Part shown: piece by piece, positions 28,782 through 38,970 of the stretch
How the letters are laid out: each line of letters starts with the position of its first letter
Numbering within the stretch: the first letter of the stretch is position 1
Source: Myxococcales bacterium
Lineage (GTDB): Bacteria; Myxococcota_A; Polyangia; Palsa-1104; SHYY01
Reading direction: 5' to 3'
NCBI GenBank assembly: GCA_009692555.1
Contig: SHYY01000034.1
Coordinates: 1 to 39,145, forward strand
Length of the DNA stretch: 39,145 nucleotides
The notes under the pieces: model-generated
What the model saw: the letters and a program-made list of their open reading frames with translations, nothing else
What the model was told of the DNA's origin: nothing
Databases searched by the model: none
Made by a program: the position numbers and the translations under genes

Positions 28782-29417
28782 ATGAGCGTGATGGTCGGCC
28801 AGCACCACATCATCAAGGAAACCAGCGAGACGATCGGGCAGCTCCTCCAGGGGACCTTCCGCGAGGCCGGCTACAAGCGTGTCCACCTCGTCGTCGCCGC
28901 GCCCAAGCAGGAGGCGATCGAGGGCAAGCTGCCGGCGGTGTCGGTGTACCTCTACAACCTCACCCTCGACGAAGAGGGGATCTCCGCCAACCGGAACCAG
29001 CGGATCGAGCAGGAGATCCAGCCCGACGGCTCGGTCAAGGAGGTCGCCCGCGACCAGCCCCTCTGGCTGCGCCTCGACTACCTGATCTCGACCTGGGCCC
29101 AGACCCCCGAGGAGGAGCAGCTCCTGATGGGCGTCGCGATCCGCGGGATCATCGAGCACCCCACCCTCCGCGGCGCGGAGCTGAAGGGCGACTCGATGGC
29201 CTCCGTCGACTACATCCCGCTCCTTCTGTCGCAGCGGCTCGACGAGGGCGTGCTGTCGCGCTTCTGGGCCAGCCTGAACCAGCCGCTCAAGCCCGGGATC
29301 CAGTGCTGGACGACGGTGCCGCTCTTCCCGAGCGGGAGCAGCCCGGTCACACGGGTGGTCGATCCGCCCGAGGTGCGCTTTTTCGATCTCAACAAGCTCA
29401 ATCGCGTGGGGGGCTAA
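28782..29417 (+). CDS. eCIS tail terminator/cap protein, Pvc16-like (DUF4255)
   Basis: A 211-residue protein of the DUF4255/Pvc16 N-terminal family, which caps the tail tube and sheath in contractile injection systems. Supporting stretches are the N-terminal helix (IIKETSETIGQLLQGTFREAG), LPAVSVYLYNLTLDEEG, WLRLDYLISTWAQTPEEEQLLMGVAIRGI and the C-terminal VRFFDLNKL. It is the first gene of the operon. A second in-frame ATG lies three codons on. In Afp and PVC clusters this gene is usually last; in other eCIS lineages it leads, as here. Confidence 0.88.
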   Translation: MSVMVGQHHIIKETSETIGQLLQGTFREAGYKRVHLVVAAPKQEAIEGKLPAVSVYLYNLTLDEEGISANRNQRIEQEIQPDGSVKEVARDQPLWLRLDYLISTWAQTPEEEQLLMGVAIRGIIEHPTLRGAELKGDSMASVDYIPLLLSQRLDEGVLSRFWASLNQPLKPGIQCWTTVPLFPSGSSPVTRVVDPPEVRFFDLNKLNRVGG

Positions 29418-29480: not shown

Positions 29481-29541
29481 GGCGGGCCCTGTGGCGACCC
29501 AAAAGGCGCATAGGGGTTACCCCACGAAGGAGGCCCAGATC

Positions 29542-30777
<1,236 letters not shown>

Positions 30778-30846: not shown

Positions 30847-31776
30847 ATGCCGATCACCCAGTCAGCCCGCGCTTACACAGCAGGAAAGTACGCCCTCGAG
30901 CTCGATGGCATCAACGCCGGATGGCTCCACAGCGTCGAAGGCGGCCACGCCACCTCCGACGTCGTCTCCGAGAAGGTGGGCGCCGGCCACACCGTCCACA
31001 AGCACCTCGGCGGCGTGAAGTACGAGGACATCTCGTTCAGCTGCGGCACCGGCATGTCGAAGGGCACCTACGAGTGGATCAAGGCCTCCTTCGACCACAA
31101 GTACCAGCGCAAGAACGGAGCGGTCCTGACCGCCGACTACGACTTCAACGAGCACTCGCGGCTCACGTTCTTCAACGCGATGCCGACCGAGTTCGGCCTC
31201 CCGGCCCTCGACGCCGCTTCGAAGGACGCCGCGAAGATGACGATCAAGGTCGCCCCCGAGTACACCCGCCAGACCACCAGCAAGGGTGGCGCCTCGATCG
31301 CCGGCAAGTACGCCAACAAGCCCGGCGTCCAGAAGAAGTGGCTGCCCGCCAACTTCAAGCTCCAGATCGACGGCCTCGACTGCACCCGGGTCAACAAGAT
31401 CGAGGCGATCGTGGTCAAGCAGAAGGTCGTCGAGAACCCGGTCGGCGAGCTCCGCGACTACCAGAAGGAGCCGGCCGCCCTCGAGACCCCGAACCTCGTG
31501 ATCACCTTCCCCGAGTCCCACGCCGACGAGTTCTACAAGTGGCACGAGGACTTCGTGATCAAGGGGAACAACGGCGACGACAAGGAGAAGGGCGGGACGC
31601 TCGACTACCTCGACCCGTCGCTGAAGGCGGTCCTCTTCACCCTCACCTTCCAGCACCTCGGCGTCTTCAAGCTGACGCCCGAGAAGGTGGAGTCGCACAG
31701 CGAGAACATCCGCCGCCTCAAGTGCGAGATGTACTGCGAAGAGATCAAGTTCGACTACAAAGAGAGCTGGGCGTAG
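30847..31776 (+). CDS. Two-domain tail-tube-like protein
   Basis: A 309-residue protein with two copies of a gp19-like tube fold. Domain 1 (about 10-120) reads YALELDGINAGWLHSVEGGHATSDVV...LGGVKYEDISFSCGTGMSKGTYEWIKASF. Domain 2 (about 165-305) reads WLPANFKLQIDGLDCTRVNKIEAIVVKQK and ends LKCEMYCEEIKFDYKESWA. A single tube domain is about 145 residues, so this looks like an internal duplication. AGGAGG at 30836-30841 precedes ATG 30847. It may stack as a pseudo-hexamer at one end of the tube (cap or baseplate adaptor); that is inference. The ordinary tube gene follows at 34242. Confidence 0.75.
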   Translation: MPITQSARAYTAGKYALELDGINAGWLHSVEGGHATSDVVSEKVGAGHTVHKHLGGVKYEDISFSCGTGMSKGTYEWIKASFDHKYQRKNGAVLTADYDFNEHSRLTFFNAMPTEFGLPALDAASKDAAKMTIKVAPEYTRQTTSKGGASIAGKYANKPGVQKKWLPANFKLQIDGLDCTRVNKIEAIVVKQKVVENPVGELRDYQKEPAALETPNLVITFPESHADEFYKWHEDFVIKGNNGDDKEKGGTLDYLDPSLKAVLFTLTFQHLGVFKLTPEKVESHSENIRRLKCEMYCEEIKFDYKESWA

Positions 31777-31862: not shown

Positions 31863-32252
31863 ATGGCCTTCCAGACCGAATATCCATTCACCCTCCCGAA
31901 GGGGTTCGTGGACAGCGAAGGAAAGCTCCACAAGAGTGGAGTGATGCGTCTCGCGACCGCGAAGGACGAGATCATCCCGCTTCAGGATTATCGGGTTCAG
32001 GGGAACCGCGCCTACCTGGTCATCATCCTCTTGAGCCGGGTAATCGTGAAGCTGGGCGACATCAAGTACATCGACACGGACATCATCGAGAACCTGTTCT
32101 CCACCGATCTGGCCTACCTCCAGGAGTTCTATCGTCGAATCAACGAAGAGGGTGCTCCGAAGATCCACGCGAAGTGCCCGTCGTGCCAGAACGAATTCGA
32201 CATCGATCTACTCGGAGGAGGTGAGGGCCGCGTAGTTGGCCAGGGGGGATAG
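31863..32252 (+). CDS. Phage E/41-type tail assembly chaperone
   Basis: A 129-residue protein resembling the tail assembly chaperones of the P2 E / Mu gp41 group: FTLPKGFVDSEGKLHKSGVMRLATAKDEI, then YLVIILLSRVIVKLGDI and IENLFSTDLAYLQEFYRRIN. A CPSCQNEFDI Cys pair precedes a Gly-rich tail ending GQGG. In tailed phages this gene lies just before the tape measure and makes a second, longer product by -1 frameshifting. Here the last two sense codons form the slippery site G GGG GGA directly before the TAG stop (32250-32252), and the -1 frame continues into the DUF6760-like segment. The predicted extended product has about 184 residues. Confidence 0.85.
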   Translation: MAFQTEYPFTLPKGFVDSEGKLHKSGVMRLATAKDEIIPLQDYRVQGNRAYLVIILLSRVIVKLGDIKYIDTDIIENLFSTDLAYLQEFYRRINEEGAPKIHAKCPSCQNEFDIDLLGGGEGRVVGQGG

Positions 32253-32289
32253 TTAGCTACCCCCTGGAGCAGATTTACCAGGAGGTAGC
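32213..32289 (+). promoter_or_regulatory. Candidate programmed -1 ribosomal frameshift signal
   Basis: In order: a Shine-Dalgarno-like tract GGAGGAGGTGAGGG (32213-32226); the slippery heptamer G GGG GGA (32243-32249) in the correct phase (CAG GGG GGA); the zero-frame stop TAG at 32250-32252; a 6-nt spacer (32250-32255); and a stem-loop, GCTACC (32256-32261) with GGTAGC (32284-32289) and inner CTGG (32264-32267) with CCAG (32278-32281). A slip of one base back enters ATA GTT AGC TAC, the first codons of the DUF6760-like frame. All parts and spacings match known bacterial and phage -1 signals. Confidence 0.75.
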
Positions 32290-32416
32290 CTACATCGCCT
32301 ATCACTTCCACTGGACCTTGGATGACGTCTTGTCGATGGAGCATGACGAGAGACACATCTGGCTGCGGGAAATAGCCAGAATCAATAAGGAAATCAACGA
32401 AGCGAGGAAGCGTTAG
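32249..32416 (+). CDS. DUF6760-like segment reached by -1 frameshift
   Basis: The frame from 32249 to the TAG at 32414-32416 reads IVSYPLEQIYQEVAYIAYHF, then HWTLDDVLSMEHDERHIWLREIARINKE..., 55 residues resembling the DUF6760 proteins found in eCIS clusters (YPLE..YEEVAFIAYHFHW, then EH..R..W..EI..IN). In this frame a TGA stands at 32222-32224, and between it and the conserved block there is no ATG, GTG or TTG; the first ordinary in-frame starts fall within the domain. It is therefore annotated as the C-terminal extension of the tail assembly chaperone. Initiation at the non-standard ATA 32249 is the alternative. Confidence 0.7.
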   Translation: MVSYPLEQIYQEVAYIAYHFHWTLDDVLSMEHDERHIWLREIARINKEINEARKR

Positions 32417-32435: not shown

Positions 32436-34223
32436 ATGAGGGCCCAAAGGGAAATCAGACCTCCGGGGGTATACCCGGCCTCCGAACTGGTCAGGGCAGG
32501 CGCCCTCTCCGTCGCGGAGACACGCACGGGCGGCTTCGTCGGCCTGGCATCCCGGGGTCCGCTCGACGAACCCCGCCGGATCACCGGCTGGAACGAGTTC
32601 CTCGAGATCTACGGGCAGTCCAGCGAGGGCTATCTCGCGCGCGCCGTCGAGGGCTTCTTCGTCAACGGCGGCAAGGCTTGCTACGTCGTTCGCATTGCCC
32701 ACCGTCCCAAGGCGGGCGAGCTCTCCGGGCCCGATCATTCGTCGTCCGCCGAGCGGATCATCAAGGACGGCTGGGACAAGCCGACGCTGCGGGTCTCCGC
32801 CCTGAACGAGGGGCGCTGGGGAAACGCGATCTGGGTGCGGTTCGCCCAGGCGACCTCGGCGAAGACGCTGCTCACCCTTGATCTCGACGTCGGTGCCGGC
32901 GAGGCGCGCGTCAACTCCGCCCGCGGCTTCGAGCGCGGCTCCCTGGTCCGCGTCTTCGACCGTGAGAACTCCGATTACGTCGTGCTGACCGAGGTCGACG
33001 ATCGCACGCTCCGCTGGAGCTCCTCGACCCCGATCGTAAGGCGCTACCACGCCGCCGGGCCGACCTACCTCGAAGTGCTCGAGTTCGAGGTCTTCGCGTC
33101 GCTGAAGGACCGTCGCGAGGTGTTCCGCGGGCTCCAGCTCTCGCCGCTGTCGCGGAGGTACGTGGCGCGGGTGGTGAACGAGCAGTCGCAGCTGATCCGG
33201 ATCGAAGATCTCCGCTCCGCCGCTCCCTCACCGCACAACCTGCCGGTGGCGGCCCCGGCGGCGAAGCTCACCGGGGGACGCGACGGATCCGAAGCGGTAT
33301 CGGCGGAGGACTTCGTCGGCTACGATCACGGGCCCTCGGATCGCCGTGGGCTGATGTCCCTGGCGGCCGTTGAGGAGCCCGCGATGCTGGCGGTCCCCGA
33401 CGCGATGCTGGCCTATCAGCGATACCCCGGCCCGCAGGCGGACCGCCATGTCCAGCGGATCCAGGACGCGATGGTGGACGTCTGCGAGAACCTGCAGGAC
33501 CGGTTCGCGATCCTCGATATCCCGCCGACCAAGGACATCGAGGCGGTGAAGCGCTGGCGCAGGCGCGTCGACAGCTCCTACGCGGCGTTCTATTATCCGT
33601 GGGTGCTGATCGGTGGCGACCCCTCGGGGCATGGCGGAGTTCGGCAGCCACCCTCGGGGCACATCGCCGGGATCTACGCGCGCTGCGATACCCAGCACGG
33701 CAGCCACAAGGCGCCCGCCAACGAGGTGATCAACGGCGTGAACGGGCTCTCGCTGACGCTGATCGACGACCACATCGGCAGCCTCAACGCCGAAGGGGTC
33801 AACGCGATGCGGAGCTTCCCCGGGCGCGGGATCCGCGTGTGGGGCGCCCGCACGGCGAGCGACAATCCGTCGTGGCGGTACATCAACATCCGTCGGCTCT
33901 TCATCATGCTGCGTCGATCGATCATCGACGGCACCCAGTGGGCGGTGTTCGAGCCGAACAACCGGAACACCTGGGATCTGCTCTCGCGCCTCGTCGGGCT
34001 GTTCCTCGAGGGGCAGTGGAAGAAGGGCGCGTTCGCCGGCCAGTCGATGGAGGAGTCCTTCTACGTCAAGTGCGACGAGGAGACCAACTCCACCGAGGTG
34101 CGGGACAACGGCCAGATGGTCGTCGAGATCGGCGTCGCGCCTGCGATGCCGGCGGAGTTCATCATTTTCACGGTCGTCCAGAAAACGGGCGACCAGGCGT
34201 CCGAAGGGGCGCCGGCCGCATAG
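32436..34223 (+). CDS. eCIS contractile sheath protein 2 (long form)
   Basis: A 595-residue sheath-family protein. The N-terminus (REIRPPGVYPASELVRAGALSVAETRTGGFVGLASRGP) and the C-terminal domain (PSGHIAGIYARCD, GSHKAPANEVING, RVWGARTASDNPSWRYINIRRLFIMLRRS) closely parallel sheath 1. An insertion of about 180 residues relative to sheath 1 (about 100-280, including a beta-rich segment RWGNAIWVRF...LRWSSSTPIVRR) probably forms an outer domain. The start ATG 32436 has only a weak ribosome site and follows the chaperone/DUF6760 stop by 19 nt, so re-initiation is likely. Multiple sheath types are normal in eCIS; the larger form may serve at one end of the sheath or as a minor subunit. Confidence 0.94.
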   Translation: MRAQREIRPPGVYPASELVRAGALSVAETRTGGFVGLASRGPLDEPRRITGWNEFLEIYGQSSEGYLARAVEGFFVNGGKACYVVRIAHRPKAGELSGPDHSSSAERIIKDGWDKPTLRVSALNEGRWGNAIWVRFAQATSAKTLLTLDLDVGAGEARVNSARGFERGSLVRVFDRENSDYVVLTEVDDRTLRWSSSTPIVRRYHAAGPTYLEVLEFEVFASLKDRREVFRGLQLSPLSRRYVARVVNEQSQLIRIEDLRSAAPSPHNLPVAAPAAKLTGGRDGSEAVSAEDFVGYDHGPSDRRGLMSLAAVEEPAMLAVPDAMLAYQRYPGPQADRHVQRIQDAMVDVCENLQDRFAILDIPPTKDIEAVKRWRRRVDSSYAAFYYPWVLIGGDPSGHGGVRQPPSGHIAGIYARCDTQHGSHKAPANEVINGVNGLSLTLIDDHIGSLNAEGVNAMRSFPGRGIRVWGARTASDNPSWRYINIRRLFIMLRRSIIDGTQWAVFEPNNRNTWDLLSRLVGLFLEGQWKKGAFAGQSMEESFYVKCDEETNSTEVRDNGQMVVEIGVAPAMPAEFIIFTVVQKTGDQASEGAPAA

Positions 34224-34241: not shown

Positions 34242-34685
34242 ATGAAACGTCGTGAATCGTTTGGCGCGTACTACTTCGAGGTCAAGATCGGTGGCTCGGT
34301 GGGCTACTTCCGGTCCTGCAGCGGGCTCAAGTCGGAGTCCGAGGTCCAGGAGGTCGCCGAAGGTGGGCTGAACACCACGACGCACAAGCTGATCGGGCGC
34401 ACCAAGTTCCCGAACCTCGTTCTCAAGCAGGGCTTCTCGGATGGGACGCTCTTCGCCCTGCGAAGGAAGTTCATGAACGATGAGGGGCAGAAGCTGGGCC
34501 CGAACAGCGACGGCACGCGGCTCACCGGGACGATCGTCCAGAAGGGGCCCAATGGCACGGAGGCCAAGTGGGGCTTCCGGGAGGGCTGGATCTGCAAGTG
34601 GGAGGGGCCGGACTTCGACGCCTCGAAGAACGAGATCTCGATCGAGACGATCGAGATCGCCCACGAGGGTCTGGAGCCGGCTTGA
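34242..34685 (+). CDS. eCIS inner tube protein (T4 gp19-like)
   Basis: A 147-residue phage tail-tube-family protein. It follows the gp19 pattern: FGAYYFEVKIGGSVGYFRSCSGLKSESEV, EGGLNTTTHKLIGRTKFPNLVLKQGFSD, LFALRRKFMNDEG, and a C-terminal strand pair WKCKWEGP-type with ISIETIEIAHEGLEPA. It would stack as hexamers to form the rigid inner tube that carries cargo. GGAGGAGG at 34226-34233 precedes ATG 34242, 18 nt after sheath 2. Confidence 0.93.
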   Translation: MKRRESFGAYYFEVKIGGSVGYFRSCSGLKSESEVQEVAEGGLNTTTHKLIGRTKFPNLVLKQGFSDGTLFALRRKFMNDEGQKLGPNSDGTRLTGTIVQKGPNGTEAKWGFREGWICKWEGPDFDASKNEISIETIEIAHEGLEPA

Positions 34686-34734: not shown

Positions 34735-37700
34735 ATGGCGAACGGTACGGCGGCTCCGGTCCCGGTGTTCATCCCACGCACGATCGCGTCCTTCGAGCGG
34801 TCCACGAACGCGCTGGTCGCGCGCTTCGCGGAGCCCGTTCGCGCGCTCGGGATGCGCACCCTCGGGTTCATCGACCGGATCATCGGCGCCCGGCTGTTCG
34901 AGAGCGCCTCCGTGCGCCCCTCCGCCGCCGCTGCCGGTGGGGTGGCCGGACTGATCTACGCCCGTCCCTGGTATGAAATCGAAGGCGCGCGGGCTGCGGT
35001 CCGGCAGCGGCCGGTCGCCCAGTCGCGCAGCGTCGCCTCGCCGTCGGCCCCGGCAGCCTCGGCGGAGGAGGCCTTGAATGCGCCCGCGCCGTCCGCGTTC
35101 AACGCGCCGACGATCCCTGCGCCGCTGCTGGGCGACGTCGCATCCAGTGCTGCCTACGACGAGGAGGCTCCGGCTGCCCTTGGGTTCCCGCAGGGCGCGG
35201 TGGAAGCGCCGGCCAGCGTGTCGTTGCGGGCCTCGAGTGCCCCGGCGATGGAGCACGTCGTCAATCGGCCCGCACCCGTGGCACCGACGGGACAGACCGA
35301 AGCCAGGCGAGCGCCTGCGCCCGAGTACTTCGCCGCGGCGGCCCAGGCGCCGTACACGGAGCCGGTGGCGGCGATCCCCGCGGCGGGATCGCCCTCCGCG
35401 CACGCCGAGCCGGCGTCACCGGCTGTTCAGGTGGCCGCACCGCAGGTTGTGCCGGCCGTGGATGCGAACCCCGGTCCATCGCCGGCCCAGGTGGAAGCGA
35501 TCACCGCCGCGATCCGCGCCGAGGTCGCCGCCACTGCGCCTTCCGCCCAGGCGTCGCCGATGCCGATAGCGATTCCAGCGGTTTCCACAGATTCCACGTC
35601 CTCGGCGCGCGCCCCGGTCGCCCCCGCCGCCGCGCCGCCCTCCCCGGGAGCGACCGCGGCACCGCTCGCCGAGCGGGCCGGCACTGCGCCGCCCTCCCCG
35701 GGAGCGACCGCGGCACCGCTCGCCGAGCGGGCCGGCACTGCGCCGCCCGCCGTGCACCAGTCCCCTGCCGCGATTGCCTCGGCCTCCTCCGAGCGAGGTA
35801 GCCGGGTGGCTGCCACGCCGCCGGCCGATGAGGCGCGGAACGCGGCACCGCCCGAGATCCTGGCCGCGCGCGAAGTCCTCGCCGCGGCTTCCAGCGCCGT
35901 TCGGGAGCTGATCGCGGCCGAAATTGTCGGGGCCCGCGGCGGTGCGGCTTCGCCTCGCGCTGCCGGGCTGCCGGCCGCCTTGGCCACGGCCGTCGACGCG
36001 CTGCCGCTCCGCGGCTCGCTTCCCCCGGCGAGCGCGCTGGGAAGAGCCTTCGCCCATATCCAGTGGGTCGATCGCCAGGTCGTTCGTGACGCGCCGCAGG
36101 CCGGTCGGACCGTCCACGAAGGCACCGAGAGCTACGTGCTGCTTGCCCCGGACCACGACGACGCCCAGGCGCCTGTGTCCGCGCAACGGGCAGCTGGCCG
36201 AACAGTGGACACGGCTCTCGCCGCCGTGCCCCGCACCCAGACCTCGGAGTCACCGCAGGCGCGCACCTCCGCCCGCGCGGAAGCAGCGAGCACGTTGCCG
36301 AGGATCTCGGAGGCGCTCTTGCCGCGCACCTCCGCCCGCGCGGAAGCAGCTCCGTCAACTTCCTCGTTCGTGGCACCTGGCCCCGATGCGGTCGATCCTC
36401 CAGCTGGAGTGGCCGCCCCGAGGACCGTCACACAGTCGTCGCCACTCGCCGTCGCCGGAACTCCTGGCGTCGCCGACGCTGCTCCGGTCGAGCCGCTCCA
36501 GGCGGCCGCTCCCCCGAGGGCGGTCGAGCCTGCCCAGTCGCCCGCCGCGCCCGTCGCTGAGGCCACCACTTCGGCGCCTGTCGCATCACCAGCTTCGCAG
36601 GGTGAGCCTCAGGCTGCCGGGCCCTACGCCGAGCCGGAAAAGACGGCCGCGTCGCTGCCGTTTTCCGGGTTGGTGGGGACAGCCGCGGCCGCCGTCGCTG
36701 CCGCCCCGGCGGAGCTTCCCCAGGTGGGCGGTTCGGCCGAACGCGCCGTCGCTGAGCTGGCGATCGGCCGGGTCGGAGCAGCTCCGCGCTCGCAGGTCTC
36801 GGCGCTCCAGTCGTCGGCCATGCCGGAGCTTCGGGCGAGCAGCGCGCTCGTCGCGCCGCACGATCGCCGTGCGAGCCTCGATCGGTTCGTGGATCGCCTC
36901 GTCGGTAGCCGAGCTGCGCGGGATGCGCGCGTCCTTACCGTAGAACTACCGCCGCTCGGGGCTTCTTCGCTACGGGCAGCGCTCGCGCCGGTCGGCGAGT
37001 TCGTGCGCCTCCGCGAGGAGCGCGGCCCGGTCACCGGACGCCCGGCGATAGCGTCTTCCGGCGTCCCCTCCCCGGCCTCCTACCAGACCGCATTCCCTCG
37101 CGACCTGGTCGCGTCAGCCGCTGCACCGGTCCGTCCTGGGGCGGGATCGTCGCTGGCGGCGCCGTCGACTCGCATCTCCGATGCGCCCTCGGCTCCCGCC
37201 GATCGTATCGCGGTGGCCGCGTCGCCGCCCCGGCTCGAGCTCGCTCCGTTGCTGGCGCGAGCGCAGGCTTCCGCTCCGATCTCATCCGCCGAGCCCCTTG
37301 CCCTCACCCGCCCCGGTGGGATCGGAGGCCGGTCGGAGCAGCTCGCCGGGACGATCGGGATCCGGGCCGCCGGCTTCTCGGTCGACTTCATCGAGCCGGA
37401 TCGGCTGCCGGCTATGCTCGCTTCCCGCGGTGGTGCGCTGGAGCTGTTCCAGCGGTGGTCGGCTTCCGCGCAGTCCGCGTCGGGTGGCCCCACCTTCGCC
37501 CCGCCTGGGGAGGGCTCCCGCACGATGGTGGCGCCCTGGGAAGCCGCGTCCGCGTCGCGTTCGCAAGGTCTTGGCGCGGCGCAGGGTGTCGCGGCCTCGT
37601 TCGCGAATGCCGGCCTCCCGGTTGCCGGCGCCCCCGCCGTTTCCGGCGCTTCACCGGCGGTTGCGCCATCGCCCACGAGCGCGCCCGCTGTCGGTGGCGA

Positions 37701-38970
37701 GCTGGCGGGAGGTGTCGACTCCTGGTCGCAGAGCCCGACTGCCGCTGCCGCCCGAAACGTCACCGGCCCTGCACGCTCGGCGGTCGCGGAGAGCGAAGCA
37801 GCGCGCCGGCTCGACGCCGTGTGGTCGTTGATCCGTGTTTTCCCGGCCTCCGCGCAGGGCGCCCTCACCGCCGCAGCCGCCGATATCGCCGCAGGTCCCC
37901 GTGGCCGGGCGATGCCACTGCTCTCGGCCCTCGCCTCGTTCGAAGGGGGACGCGCCCAGGCCGTGGCGGCCGAGGGGGCCTCCACCGTCGCGGGTCGCCC
38001 TTCGACCGGGGGCGGAGTCGCCGCCGGGCCCGGTGCCAGACCGGCCGTCGCCGAAAATATCTCCGGGCGAGCGCCCCGGGCTCTGGGTGCGCCGGCCAGC
38101 TACGTCGCCGGTCCGGCGGGCGCGCGGCGGGTCGTCGGTGCGCTCGATCGCACGGCGCTGCCCGGCGGGCGGATGCCACGGGGAGGCTACCTCTGGTCGC
38201 GGTCCGAGTCTTTCTCCGAGCACATCGGAGACTGGGCACCGCCGGCCACGGTCTCGGCCGCGCAGAGCGGAGCCGACGCCGCCCTGGCGGGCCATTCGTC
38301 CTGGGAGGGGATGACGCCCCTCTCCTCCCAATCGGTGCATGAGGCCTTCGGGGACTACCCGGTCGGCCCCGGCACGTCGACGGCGCGGCCCGCACGGAGC
38401 GGCAGTCTGGCGCGGCCGATGATCGCGGGTCCCGGGGGTGCGGGAGCGGGTCAGAGGACGCTCCGGCCCGAGGTGGCAGCCGCTTCGGCGATGCTCCAGG
38501 GGGACGCGGCGTCGTCGCTGCTCCAGCTGGTGACCGCGTCTTCCGGCGGCTCGGCGGCAGCTGCTTCGGGGAGCGGGTCGTCCTCATCGTCGCGCGCGCC
38601 CCAGCTCTCGCTGGTCCAGCCGTCGTCGGGCCCGGCGGTTTCGTCCGCTCCGGCGTCGGAGTCGTCGGCCAGGATCCTGGATGCGCTCCGCTCGCAGCAG
38701 CAGAACGCGCCCAGCGACGACCGCGTGACGCTGGCCGATCTCACCCTGGTCGCGGCCGCTTCCTCGACCCACCAGCTCGCCGCCAGCGACCATGTGGCGC
38801 AGTCGGCCCCGCACAATGCATCGCACTCGAGCGCCGGCAGCGCGAAGGCGTCGGGTGGTGAGAAGGAGAGCCCCGAGGCCGAGCGCCGAAAGATCGAGTC
38901 GATGGCGCGCGATGTGCTCGAGGAGGTCTATCGGATGTCCGAGGTCGGCCGCGAAAGGAGTGGAGATTAG
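34735..38970 (+). CDS. Very large Ala/Pro/Ser-rich protein of the eCIS operon
   Basis: A 1411-residue protein dominated by Ala, Pro, Ser, Val and Gly, with few predicted ordered segments. The N-terminus is helical (IASFERSTNALVARFAEPVRALGMRTLGFIDRIIGARLF), and an echo of it occurs near the middle (RASLDRFVDRLVGSRAARDARVLTVELPP). Another ordered patch is VWSLIRVFPASAQGALTAAAADIAAG. The C-terminus is a charged helix (ESPEAERRKIESMARDVLEEVYRMSEVGRERSG). Two exact 54-bp repeats lie at 35632-35739. It sits between the tube and LysM genes, where I know no standard eCIS component of this size. A length-setting, lumenal or surface role is conceivable; I assign none. Confidence 0.85.
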   Translation: MANGTAAPVPVFIPRTIASFERSTNALVARFAEPVRALGMRTLGFIDRIIGARLFESASVRPSAAAAGGVAGLIYARPWYEIEGARAAVRQRPVAQSRSVASPSAPAASAEEALNAPAPSAFNAPTIPAPLLGDVASSAAYDEEAPAALGFPQGAVEAPASVSLRASSAPAMEHVVNRPAPVAPTGQTEARRAPAPEYFAAAAQAPYTEPVAAIPAAGSPSAHAEPASPAVQVAAPQVVPAVDANPGPSPAQVEAITAAIRAEVAATAPSAQASPMPIAIPAVSTDSTSSARAPVAPAAAPPSPGATAAPLAERAGTAPPSPGATAAPLAERAGTAPPAVHQSPAAIASASSERGSRVAATPPADEARNAAPPEILAAREVLAAASSAVRELIAAEIVGARGGAASPRAAGLPAALATAVDALPLRGSLPPASALGRAFAHIQWVDRQVVRDAPQAGRTVHEGTESYVLLAPDHDDAQAPVSAQRAAGRTVDTALAAVPRTQTSESPQARTSARAEAASTLPRISEALLPRTSARAEAAPSTSSFVAPGPDAVDPPAGVAAPRTVTQSSPLAVAGTPGVADAAPVEPLQAAAPPRAVEPAQSPAAPVAEATTSAPVASPASQGEPQAAGPYAEPEKTAASLPFSGLVGTAAAAVAAAPAELPQVGGSAERAVAELAIGRVGAAPRSQVSALQSSAMPELRASSALVAPHDRRASLDRFVDRLVGSRAARDARVLTVELPPLGASSLRAALAPVGEFVRLREERGPVTGRPAIASSGVPSPASYQTAFPRDLVASAAAPVRPGAGSSLAAPSTRISDAPSAPADRIAVAASPPRLELAPLLARAQASAPISSAEPLALTRPGGIGGRSEQLAGTIGIRAAGFSVDFIEPDRLPAMLASRGGALELFQRWSASAQSASGGPTFAPPGEGSRTMVAPWEAASASRSQGLGAAQGVAASFANAGLPVAGAPAVSGASPAVAPSPTSAPAVGGELAGGVDSWSQSPTAAAARNVTGPARSAVAESEAARRLDAVWSLIRVFPASAQGALTAAAADIAAGPRGRAMPLLSALASFEGGRAQAVAAEGASTVAGRPSTGGGVAAGPGARPAVAENISGRAPRALGAPASYVAGPAGARRVVGALDRTALPGGRMPRGGYLWSRSESFSEHIGDWAPPATVSAAQSGADAALAGHSSWEGMTPLSSQSVHEAFGDYPVGPGTSTARPARSGSLARPMIAGPGGAGAGQRTLRPEVAAASAMLQGDAASSLLQLVTASSGGSAAAASGSGSSSSSRAPQLSLVQPSSGPAVSSAPASESSARILDALRSQQQNAPSDDRVTLADLTLVAAASSTHQLAASDHVAQSAPHNASHSSAGSAKASGGEKESPEAERRKIESMARDVLEEVYRMSEVGRERSGD
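35632..35739 (+). repeat. Two exact 54-bp direct repeats
   Basis: Each unit encodes the 18 residues APPSPGATAAPLAERAGT. The copies are identical at DNA level and are followed by the start of a third (GCGCCGCCC). The sequence suggests length change by slippage within the large eCIS protein. A shorter duplicated block encoding RTSARAEAA occurs at about 36257 and 36326. Confidence 0.9.

What the first reader, a model, noticed from the sequence alone, without database searches (positions are those of the whole stretch)
32213..32416. Programmed -1 frameshift in an injection-system chaperone gene
The tail assembly chaperone gene stops immediately after a canonical slippery heptamer, G GGG GGA, in the right phase. 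A Shine-Dalgarno-like tract lies 16 nt upstream. A 10-bp stem-loop (6+4 bp with a small internal loop) begins 6 nt downstream. The -1 frame is exactly the frame of a DUF6760-like protein that has a TGA upstream and no ATG, GTG or TTG before its conserved block. Phage homologues of this chaperone (lambda G/GT, P2 E/E', Mu 41/42) are known to frameshift to make a short and a long chaperone that load the tape measure. I know of no description of this device in eCIS. It would mean DUF6760 is the 'T-like' extension of the chaperone, not a separate protein, and that eCIS assembly keeps the phage ratio control.
Basis: partly seen in the sequence, partly recalled or inferred. Interest (0 to 1): 0.95.

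Follow-up and report, generated by a model that had tools for sequence, protein, structure and literature searches.

The report
Frameshifted chaperone in bacterial injection machines
In this bacterium's phage-tail-like injection machine, the gene of a probable assembly chaperone ends on a slippery sequence followed by a predicted RNA hairpin, and a slippery end in the same phase recurs in relatives from several bacterial phyla and archaea, so ribosomes are predicted to slip back one base there and make a second, longer chaperone that would help to build the machine.

Summary
The chaperone ORF (31863-32252) ends CAG GGG GGA TAG; DUF6760 lies in the -1 frame, closed by a TGA upstream, with no ATG, GTG or TTG before its conserved block. 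A predicted hairpin starts 6 nt after the heptamer (z -3.45).

I read 264 loci (window included): 192 usable different junctions. DUF6760 is in the -1 phase in 191; 184 carry an in-phase slippery heptamer, mostly GGGGGAA, against 7 of 462 other gene ends. 85 have no ATG, GTG or TTG in that frame. The heptamer-to-stem distance is 6 nt in 140 of 142 loci with the stem, although the stop moves. The stem's Val codon is GTA in 140 of 166, against 3.9% elsewhere.

Programmed -1 frameshifting is the best reading. DUF6760 resembles P2 E', a frameshift extension. My searches found no description in eCIS. Against: seven relatives lack the heptamer and have a start codon nearby, the CCCGGGG group lacks the hairpin, and no product has been seen.

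The parts
28782..29417 (+). Pvc16-type gene, eCIS hallmark (context)
   Evidence: Pfam PF14065 E 2.5e-19
29491..30777 (+). tail sheath gene 1 (context)
   Evidence: PF04984 E 4.6e-20, PF17482 E 1.2e-19
30847..31776 (+). tail tube-type gene just upstream of the chaperone (context)
   Evidence: PF06841 gp19 E 7.9e-20
31863..32252 (+). tail assembly chaperone, short product, 129 aa, ATG to TAG
   Evidence: phrog_508 tail assembly chaperone E 1.1e-6; AlphaFold model matches viral models, two of them named T4-like baseplate hub assembly proteins, and Mu FS-gp41
32214..32226 (+). Shine-Dalgarno-like tract 16 nt upstream of the heptamer; not generally conserved
   Evidence: sequence; poor conservation
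32243..32249 (+). slippery heptamer G GGG GGA, zero-frame codons GGG GGA
   Evidence: sequence; in-phase heptamer in 184 of 192 junctions
32250..32252 (+). zero-frame stop TAG of the short chaperone
32249..32416 (+). -1 frame extension, DUF6760 domain (IVSYPLEQIYQEVAYIAYHFHW...), 55 codons plus TAG
   Evidence: PF20546 E 1.4e-15; predicted three-helix fold, pLDDT 94.9
32256..32261 (+). outer stem, 5' arm GCUACC, 6 nt after the heptamer
   Evidence: fold; conserved spacing
32263..32267 (+). inner stem, 5' arm CCUGG
32278..32282 (+). inner stem, 3' arm CCAGG
32284..32289 (+). outer stem, 3' arm GGUAGC (holds the GTA Val codon that most relatives share)
32436..34223 (+). tail sheath gene 2 (context)
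   Evidence: PF04984 E 3.2e-19
34242..34685 (+). tail tube gene (context)
   Evidence: PF06841 E 2.4e-27
34735..38970 (+). 1411-aa ORF of no known family; candidate tape measure (guess)
   Evidence: no Pfam, PHROG or PDB match

Best explanation
The junction very likely carries a programmed -1 ribosomal frameshift: most ribosomes are predicted to stop at TAG 32252 and make the 129-residue chaperone, while some would slip back one base on G GGG GGA, helped by the predicted hairpin 6 nt downstream, and make a roughly 184-residue chaperone-DUF6760 protein. Shown: the in-phase heptamer, the -1 phase, the missing start codon and the hairpin-forming sequence, and how widely each is conserved. Inferred: that slippage happens, how often, and that both products are used. 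By analogy with lambda G/GT and P2 E/E+E', the short form would coat the tape measure and the DUF6760 end would recruit tube subunits, so that the slip rate sets the ratio. DUF6760 is then the T-like end of the chaperone, not a gene of its own, in most of this family.
For: Phase -1 in 191 of 192 usable different junctions (leaving out L132 and L237). In-phase heptamer in 184 of 192, eight kinds. On a quick tree of 192 chaperones the heptamer type changes at least 21 times, but presence only 4 times, while a nearby start codon comes and goes at least 33 times. Background at other gene ends: 7 of 462. No ATG/GTG/TTG anywhere in the open DUF6760 frame in 85 junctions. Heptamer-to-stem spacer 6 nt in 140 of 142, while the stop lies 0, 1, 5 or 12 codons after the heptamer; the usual range is 5-9 nt (PMC8211752 passage). 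Hairpin stability against synonymous-codon controls: mean z -2.89 (141 loci) and -1.76 (36 others). GTA in the stem at 140 of 166 Val sites, against 3.9% of 2213 other Val codons. GGGGGAA is the only 'fivetwo' motif in about a thousand cases among annotated, not individually tested, actinophage chaperone frameshifts (PMC10885494 passages) and was proposed in corynephage phi16 (PMC5506516 passage). DUF6760 vs P2 E': hhalign probability 88.4, E 2.8e-6. Six further places with weak chaperone hits, first left out: 6 of 6 in -1 phase.
Against: No product has been seen. GGGGGAA needs a G-U pair when tRNA-Glu re-pairs. 8 of 192 junctions lack a heptamer, and 7 of those 8 have a nearby start codon, so coupled initiation probably exists in the family. 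57 of 184 heptamer loci also have a nearby start, 42 of them a GTG with a TGA stop. The first -1 codon after the slip is AT-something in 142 of 184 (ATC 93, ATA 34, ATT 10, ATG 5), possible weak starts. The 14 CCCGGGG junctions show no excess hairpin (mean z -0.07). The chaperone shows no profile similarity to P2 E. The tape measure is not directly downstream. Loci are related, so counts are not independent events.
Confidence: 0.88

Rival explanations
1. DUF6760 is a separate protein made by termination-coupled reinitiation, at an overlapping ATG or GTG where present and at a weak start (ATA, ATC, ATT) elsewhere.
For: L227, L229, L232, L233 have ATGA overlaps and no slippery run; L230 has a GTG 15 nt downstream in phase 0. 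AT-something is the first -1 codon in 142 of 184 heptamer loci. Many of the 41 predicted proteins printed start MSYPL, MASYPL or the like, though gene callers need a start codon.
Against: 85 junctions have no ATG/GTG/TTG at all, 84 of them with a heptamer. The first codon is GTA, GTC, GCG, TCC, AGC or GTT in 34 of 184. Start presence changes at least 33 times on the tree, heptamer presence 4 times. The conserved distance is heptamer to hairpin, not stop to start. A stable hairpin just after the site would be expected to hinder initiation.
Confidence: 0.08
2. RNA polymerase slips on the G run and inserts a G, so that a share of the mRNA reads straight into DUF6760.
For: Most heptamers are G runs of 5 to 7.
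Against: CCCGGGG (14) and GGGAAAA/T/G (4) junctions are no long homopolymers. Runs of 5-6 are short for polymerase slippage (general knowledge). The hairpin at fixed spacing has no role in this model.
Confidence: 0.02
3. The frame change is an assembly error or a decayed gene.
For: The genome is a fragmented assembly (283 contigs).
Against: The same -1 phase in 191 of 192 junctions across phyla, with conserved protein on both sides.
Confidence: 0.01

Closest known systems
Phage P2 E / E+E' (Peduoviridae)
   Same: -1 frameshift near the end of a tail assembly chaperone gene placed after the tube gene; extension similar to DUF6760 (hhalign 88%); P2 annotation.
   Different: Slippery TTTTTTG and no predicted hairpin in P2 (PMC3091744 passage); phage, not an injection machine; chaperone body not alike by profile; tape measure directly downstream in P2.
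Phage lambda G / GT
   Same: -1 frameshift giving short and long chaperone (PMC5009743 passages); a GGGAAAG heptamer occurs here too, in L234 (that this is lambda's own heptamer is recalled).
   Different: No sequence relation tested; siphophage.
Phage Mu gp41 / FS-gp41
   Same: Predicted fold of the chaperone matches FS-gp41 (Foldseek E 0.018, probability 1.00); weak Gp41_Mu Pfam hits in 8 of 29 members, best E 0.063.
   Different: Mu uses -2 frameshifting (PMC5009743 passage).
T4-like baseplate hub assembly / tail assembly chaperone genes
   Same: Of six viral fold matches with E up to 0.001, two are named T4-like baseplate hub assembly proteins (E 1.3e-6 and 8.9e-4).
   Different: A paper's title says that T4-like chaperones use something other than frameshifting (Vladimirov 2022, seen only as a reference; the paper is not held).
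Actinophage chaperones with GGGGGAA
   Same: Same slippery heptamer (PMC10885494, PMC5506516 passages).
   Different: Phages; in 50,697 phage records DUF6760 had no tblastn match up to E 1 and the chaperone only two, at E 0.05 and 0.2.

Membership tests
Phage-type tail assembly chaperone frameshift pair | Slippery heptamer in phase near the end of the first ORF | tested here: met
   Window; 184 of 192 junctions:
Phage-type tail assembly chaperone frameshift pair | Second ORF in the -1 (or +1/-2) frame, conserved | tested here: met
   191 of 192 in -1 phase
Phage-type tail assembly chaperone frameshift pair | Second ORF has no start of its own | tested here: met
   True for the window and for 85 of 192 junctions; 64 of 192 do have a nearby start codon
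Phage-type tail assembly chaperone frameshift pair | First ORF belongs to the tail assembly chaperones | tested here: met
   phrog_508 in 29 of 29 members; Mu FS-gp41 fold; but no convincing Pfam match and no similarity to P2 E
Phage-type tail assembly chaperone frameshift pair | Genes lie between tube and tape measure genes | tested here: inconclusive
   Tube upstream; downstream come sheath, tube, then a 1411-aa ORF of unknown family
Phage-type tail assembly chaperone frameshift pair | Both products are made, in a fixed ratio | not testable with these tools
   Needs protein or ribosome profiling data
Extracellular contractile injection system (eCIS) | Sheath, tube and Pvc16-type genes together | tested here: met
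   Window. Second own locus C274: sheaths, tube and Pvc16. Same-genus L279: Pvc16
Extracellular contractile injection system (eCIS) | CIS tube/LysM, gp25 and baseplate J genes | tested here: met
   In same-genus L279 (PF19266, PF04965, PF04865) and own second locus L277 (PF19266 with LysM, and GPD); the window's contig ends before these
Extracellular contractile injection system (eCIS) | AAA+ ATPase (Afp15 type); no head or terminase genes | not tested
   No systematic search for these was made
P2 GpE (PF06528) | Match above the family's curated cut-off | tested here: not met
   Window domain 13.1 bits against 23; 9 of 13 members match at E up to 1, best 0.0012. Resemblance only, by hhalign
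DUF6760 (PF20546) | Match above curated cut-off | tested here: met
   57.5 bits against 27

The most novel reading that the evidence does not exclude
Contractile injection systems of bacteria and archaea, although no longer viruses, have kept the phage trick of recoding: a -1 frameshift at varied slippery heptamers, mostly with a hairpin held 6 nt away, makes a long chaperone whose DUF6760 end starts tube growth on the tape measure. DUF6760 is not a protein in its own right in most of them, and the slip rate sets how many machines are built.
Probability: 0.65. Interest if true: 0.87.

Novelty: new variant of a known kind. Interest (0 to 1): 0.82.

Why it matters
It would extend a recoding device known from phage tails to a cellular injection machine, across phyla and into archaea. 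It gives DUF6760 a likely function and says that a product has been missed by annotation: of the 120 proteins listed for the 184-residue query, 119 cover only the chaperone part (64-70% of the query) and one covers both. It also gives a single-site, testable handle on how eCIS assembly is started and scaled.

Tried and rejected
Transcriptional slippage: rejected as general cause, because four heptamer kinds are not long homopolymers. Assembly error: rejected. SD stimulator as a required part: not supported. Close phage origin: no match to DUF6760 in phage records and only two matches, E 0.05 and 0.2, to the chaperone. Chaperone as a P2 E homologue: no signal. Natural in-frame fusion as proof: one 174-aa protein, P0006, joins both domains (1 of the 120 listed of 5546), but its DNA was not seen and a lost or gained base could explain it. 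Rfam: no match at gathering threshold in the window. PDB: no sequence relative of the chaperone up to E 1; best fold match YqbN 3klu, E 0.37. The independent-pairs test of heptamer loss against start gain had too few pairs. A mixed alignment of chaperones and DUF6760 proteins came out misaligned and was not used.

Rows dropped before counts. From (144 of 377 genomes matched) I used the 30 loci returned (window included) plus 80 further listed places, 111 loci with the paralog; other listed matches were not fetched, and itself says that more matches are not listed. Six places with weak chaperone hits, left out at first, were read. Of 264 loci (window included), L121, L228, L236, L238 and L239 gave no chaperone or no DUF6760. 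The other 259 collapse to 194 different junctions. L132 (chaperone frame broken upstream) and L237 (not a real member) were then left out, giving 192; one search left out only L237 (193), and searches used the 191 in -1 phase. Loci are related, so counts are not independent events.

Full report
What is in the window. The chaperone ORF runs 31863-32252 and ends CAG GGG GGA TAG. In the -1 frame a 55-codon stretch follows, ATA GTT AGC TAC CCC..., ending TAG 32414-32416; it matches DUF6760 (PF20546) with 57.5 bits against a cut-off of 27. The -1 frame is closed by TGA 32222-32224 upstream, with no ATG, GTG or TTG before the conserved block. RNA folding of 32250-32310 gives a hairpin of 6 bp, a 1x1 mismatch and 5 bp, starting at 32256, 6 nt after the heptamer: -20 kcal/mol, z -3.45, 0 of 200 shuffles as stable.

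Context. The neighbours are a Pvc16-type gene, two sheath genes, tube-type genes and a 1411-aa ORF of unknown family. The contig ends there. A same-genus genome continues with CIS tube, gp25 and baseplate J genes. The own genome has a second such locus with its own chaperone (57% identity) and DUF6760, again in the -1 frame. This is an eCIS by content; the ATPase and the absence of head genes were not checked.

Relatives. In the first set (own phylum, window included) 111 of 111 loci had DUF6760 right behind the chaperone in the -1 phase. Heptamers: GGGGGAA 89, GGGGGGG 8, GGGGGGA 6, CCCGGGG 6, GGGGGAG 1, GGGAAAA 1. These included records named as Chloroflexi, an ANME-1 archaeon, KSB1, Kitasatospora, Acidobacteria, Nitrospirota and Methylopila; 88 of the 89 that could be read were in the -1 phase, the other being L132. 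Searches by family found matches in 19 of 296 genomes (phylum of Kitasatospora), 7 of 398 (phylum of Methylopila; 3 over cut-off), 22 of 251 (phylum of L175, Chloroflexi), 1 of 149 (phylum of the Acidobacteria record) and 6 of 148 (phylum of the archaeon).

Pooled: 194 different junctions, 192 usable. 191 are in the -1 phase. 184 have an in-phase heptamer: GGGGGAA 123, GGGGGGG 20, GGGGGGA 19, CCCGGGG 14, GGGGGAG 4, GGGAAAT 2, GGGAAAA 1, GGGAAAG 1. The two GGGAAAT loci come from the archaeal phylum and have no ATG/GTG/TTG in the DUF6760 frame. The 127 GGGGGAA/GGGGGAG junctions do not fit X XXY YYZ strictly; but GGGGGAA is the only 'fivetwo' motif in about a thousand cases among annotated (not individually tested) actinophage chaperone frameshifts, explained by G-U re-pairing (PMC10885494 passages), and was proposed for corynephage phi16 (PMC5506516 passage).

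Controls. Heptamers of these kinds 0-1 codon before the stop are seen at 177 of 193 chaperone ends and at 7 of 462 other gene ends in the same loci; two of the seven look like chaperone ends that escaped exclusion. On a quick tree of 192 chaperones (cut before the heptamer where there is one), heptamer type changes at least 21 times and presence 4 times, while presence of a nearby start codon changes at least 33 times. So what selection seems to keep is slipperiness, not a start codon.

Hairpin. All six outer pairs form in 144 of 191 loci. In 142 heptamer loci with this stem the spacer is 6 nt in 140 and 9 nt in 2, although the stop is 0, 1, 5 or 12 codons after the heptamer. This is the strongest single argument for frameshifting over reinitiation. 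Valine in the 3' arm is GTA in 140 of 166 cases, against 3.9% of 2213 other valines in the same genes. Against synonymous-codon controls the mean z is -2.89 for the 141 GGTAGC-type loci and -1.76 for 36 others. In L186 and L217 of the latter the predicted stem is long and in another register (folds printed). The 14 CCCGGGG loci show no excess structure (-0.07), which is a result against a universal hairpin.

Exceptions. Eight of 192 lack a heptamer: L119 (GTG), L222 (no start either), L227, L229, L232, L233 (ATGA overlap), L230 (phase 0, GTG) and L264 (ATG). Seven of these eight have a nearby start codon, against 57 of 184 with a heptamer (Fisher p 0.002; for ATG alone 5 of 8 against 9 of 184; lineages not independent). 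So some divergent relatives seem to make DUF6760 as a separate, coupled protein.

Late test. Six places with weak chaperone hits (E 6e-12 to 4e-4), left out at first, were then read. 6 of 6 have a DUF6760 in the -1 phase. By eye on the printed codons, four have an in-phase canonical heptamer: GGGGGGG (L284, L286, both also with a GTG at the stop), CCCGGGG (L287), TTTTTTA (L285). L283 has an ATG, and L282 has neither.

What the parts are. All 29 aligned chaperones match PHROG 508, tail assembly chaperone. The AlphaFold model (pLDDT 80.7; the last 14 residues low) has six viral matches with E up to 0.001, two of them named T4-like baseplate hub assembly proteins, and matches Mu FS-gp41 (E 0.018, probability 1.00); nothing significant in PDB. 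DUF6760 folds as three helices (pLDDT 94.9). Its profile aligns to eight P2-type E' sequences with probability 88.4 (13 members) and 83.1 (28 members). The PF06528 cut-off is not reached, and viral fold matches are not significant. So it works like, and is probably related to, the P2 E' end.

Mechanism and function. The anatomy fits -1 programmed frameshifting: slippery heptamer, 6-nt spacer, hairpin, stop at once after. In lambda the short product binds the tape measure and the T end binds the tube subunit (PMC5009743 passages). Transfer of that role here is inference.

Prior work. Full-text searches in an open-access library found no paper with the word DUF6760, none with 'extracellular contractile injection' and 'programmed frameshift', and 5 with 'contractile injection' and 'frameshifting'. 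Of these five I read passages of three: two name frameshifting only in their reference lists and one treats tail tube proteins; the other two were seen only in the listing. Further searches, of which only the top of the list was seen where many papers matched (20 of 119; 15 of 36). By term count the main texts of three papers on eCIS or CIS hold no word beginning 'frameshift'; only passages of them were read. Most subscription papers are not held, among them Vladimirov 2022 on T4-like chaperones, so an earlier mention cannot be excluded.

Noticed in passing
window 29391-29417: The Pvc16-type gene ends GTG GGG GGC TAA, another in-phase run (GGGGGGC) at a gene end; L114 has a like gene end. Whether anything lies in the -1 frame was not checked.
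   Followed up: no
L227, L229, L232, L233, L230: Divergent relatives from the Actinomycetota sample have DUF6760 with its own start (ATGA overlap or a GTG downstream) and no slippery run; two expression modes in one family.
   Followed up: partly
L285: A far relative whose chaperone ORF seems to hold two chaperone-like repeats and ends near T TTT TTA, much like P2's TTTTTTG.
   Followed up: no
L260, L261: Loci of the archaeal phylum with in-phase GGGAAAT and no start codon for DUF6760; -1 frameshifting is known in few archaeal genes (PMC8211752 passages).
   Followed up: partly
window 31863-32252 (chaperone residues 105-108): A conserved CPxC motif near the chaperone's end with weak zinc-ribbon matches.
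   Followed up: no
L023, L025, L032, L035, L037, L041 and other CCCGGGG loci: This group keeps a perfect CCCGGGG heptamer but shows no hairpin above controls; its stimulator, if any, is unknown.
   Followed up: partly
L270, L271, L272, L274, L275: P2-like phage records annotate the GpE end as a separate gene next to the chaperone, although in P2 it is the frameshift product.
   Followed up: no
L132: Chaperone frame broken upstream of a CCCGGGG junction that otherwise looks normal; indel or assembly error.
   Followed up: no
L177: A record titled Klebsiella pneumoniae MAG carries this locus with 74% identity to one of the query chaperones, all from the window's phylum; the title looks wrong.
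   Followed up: no
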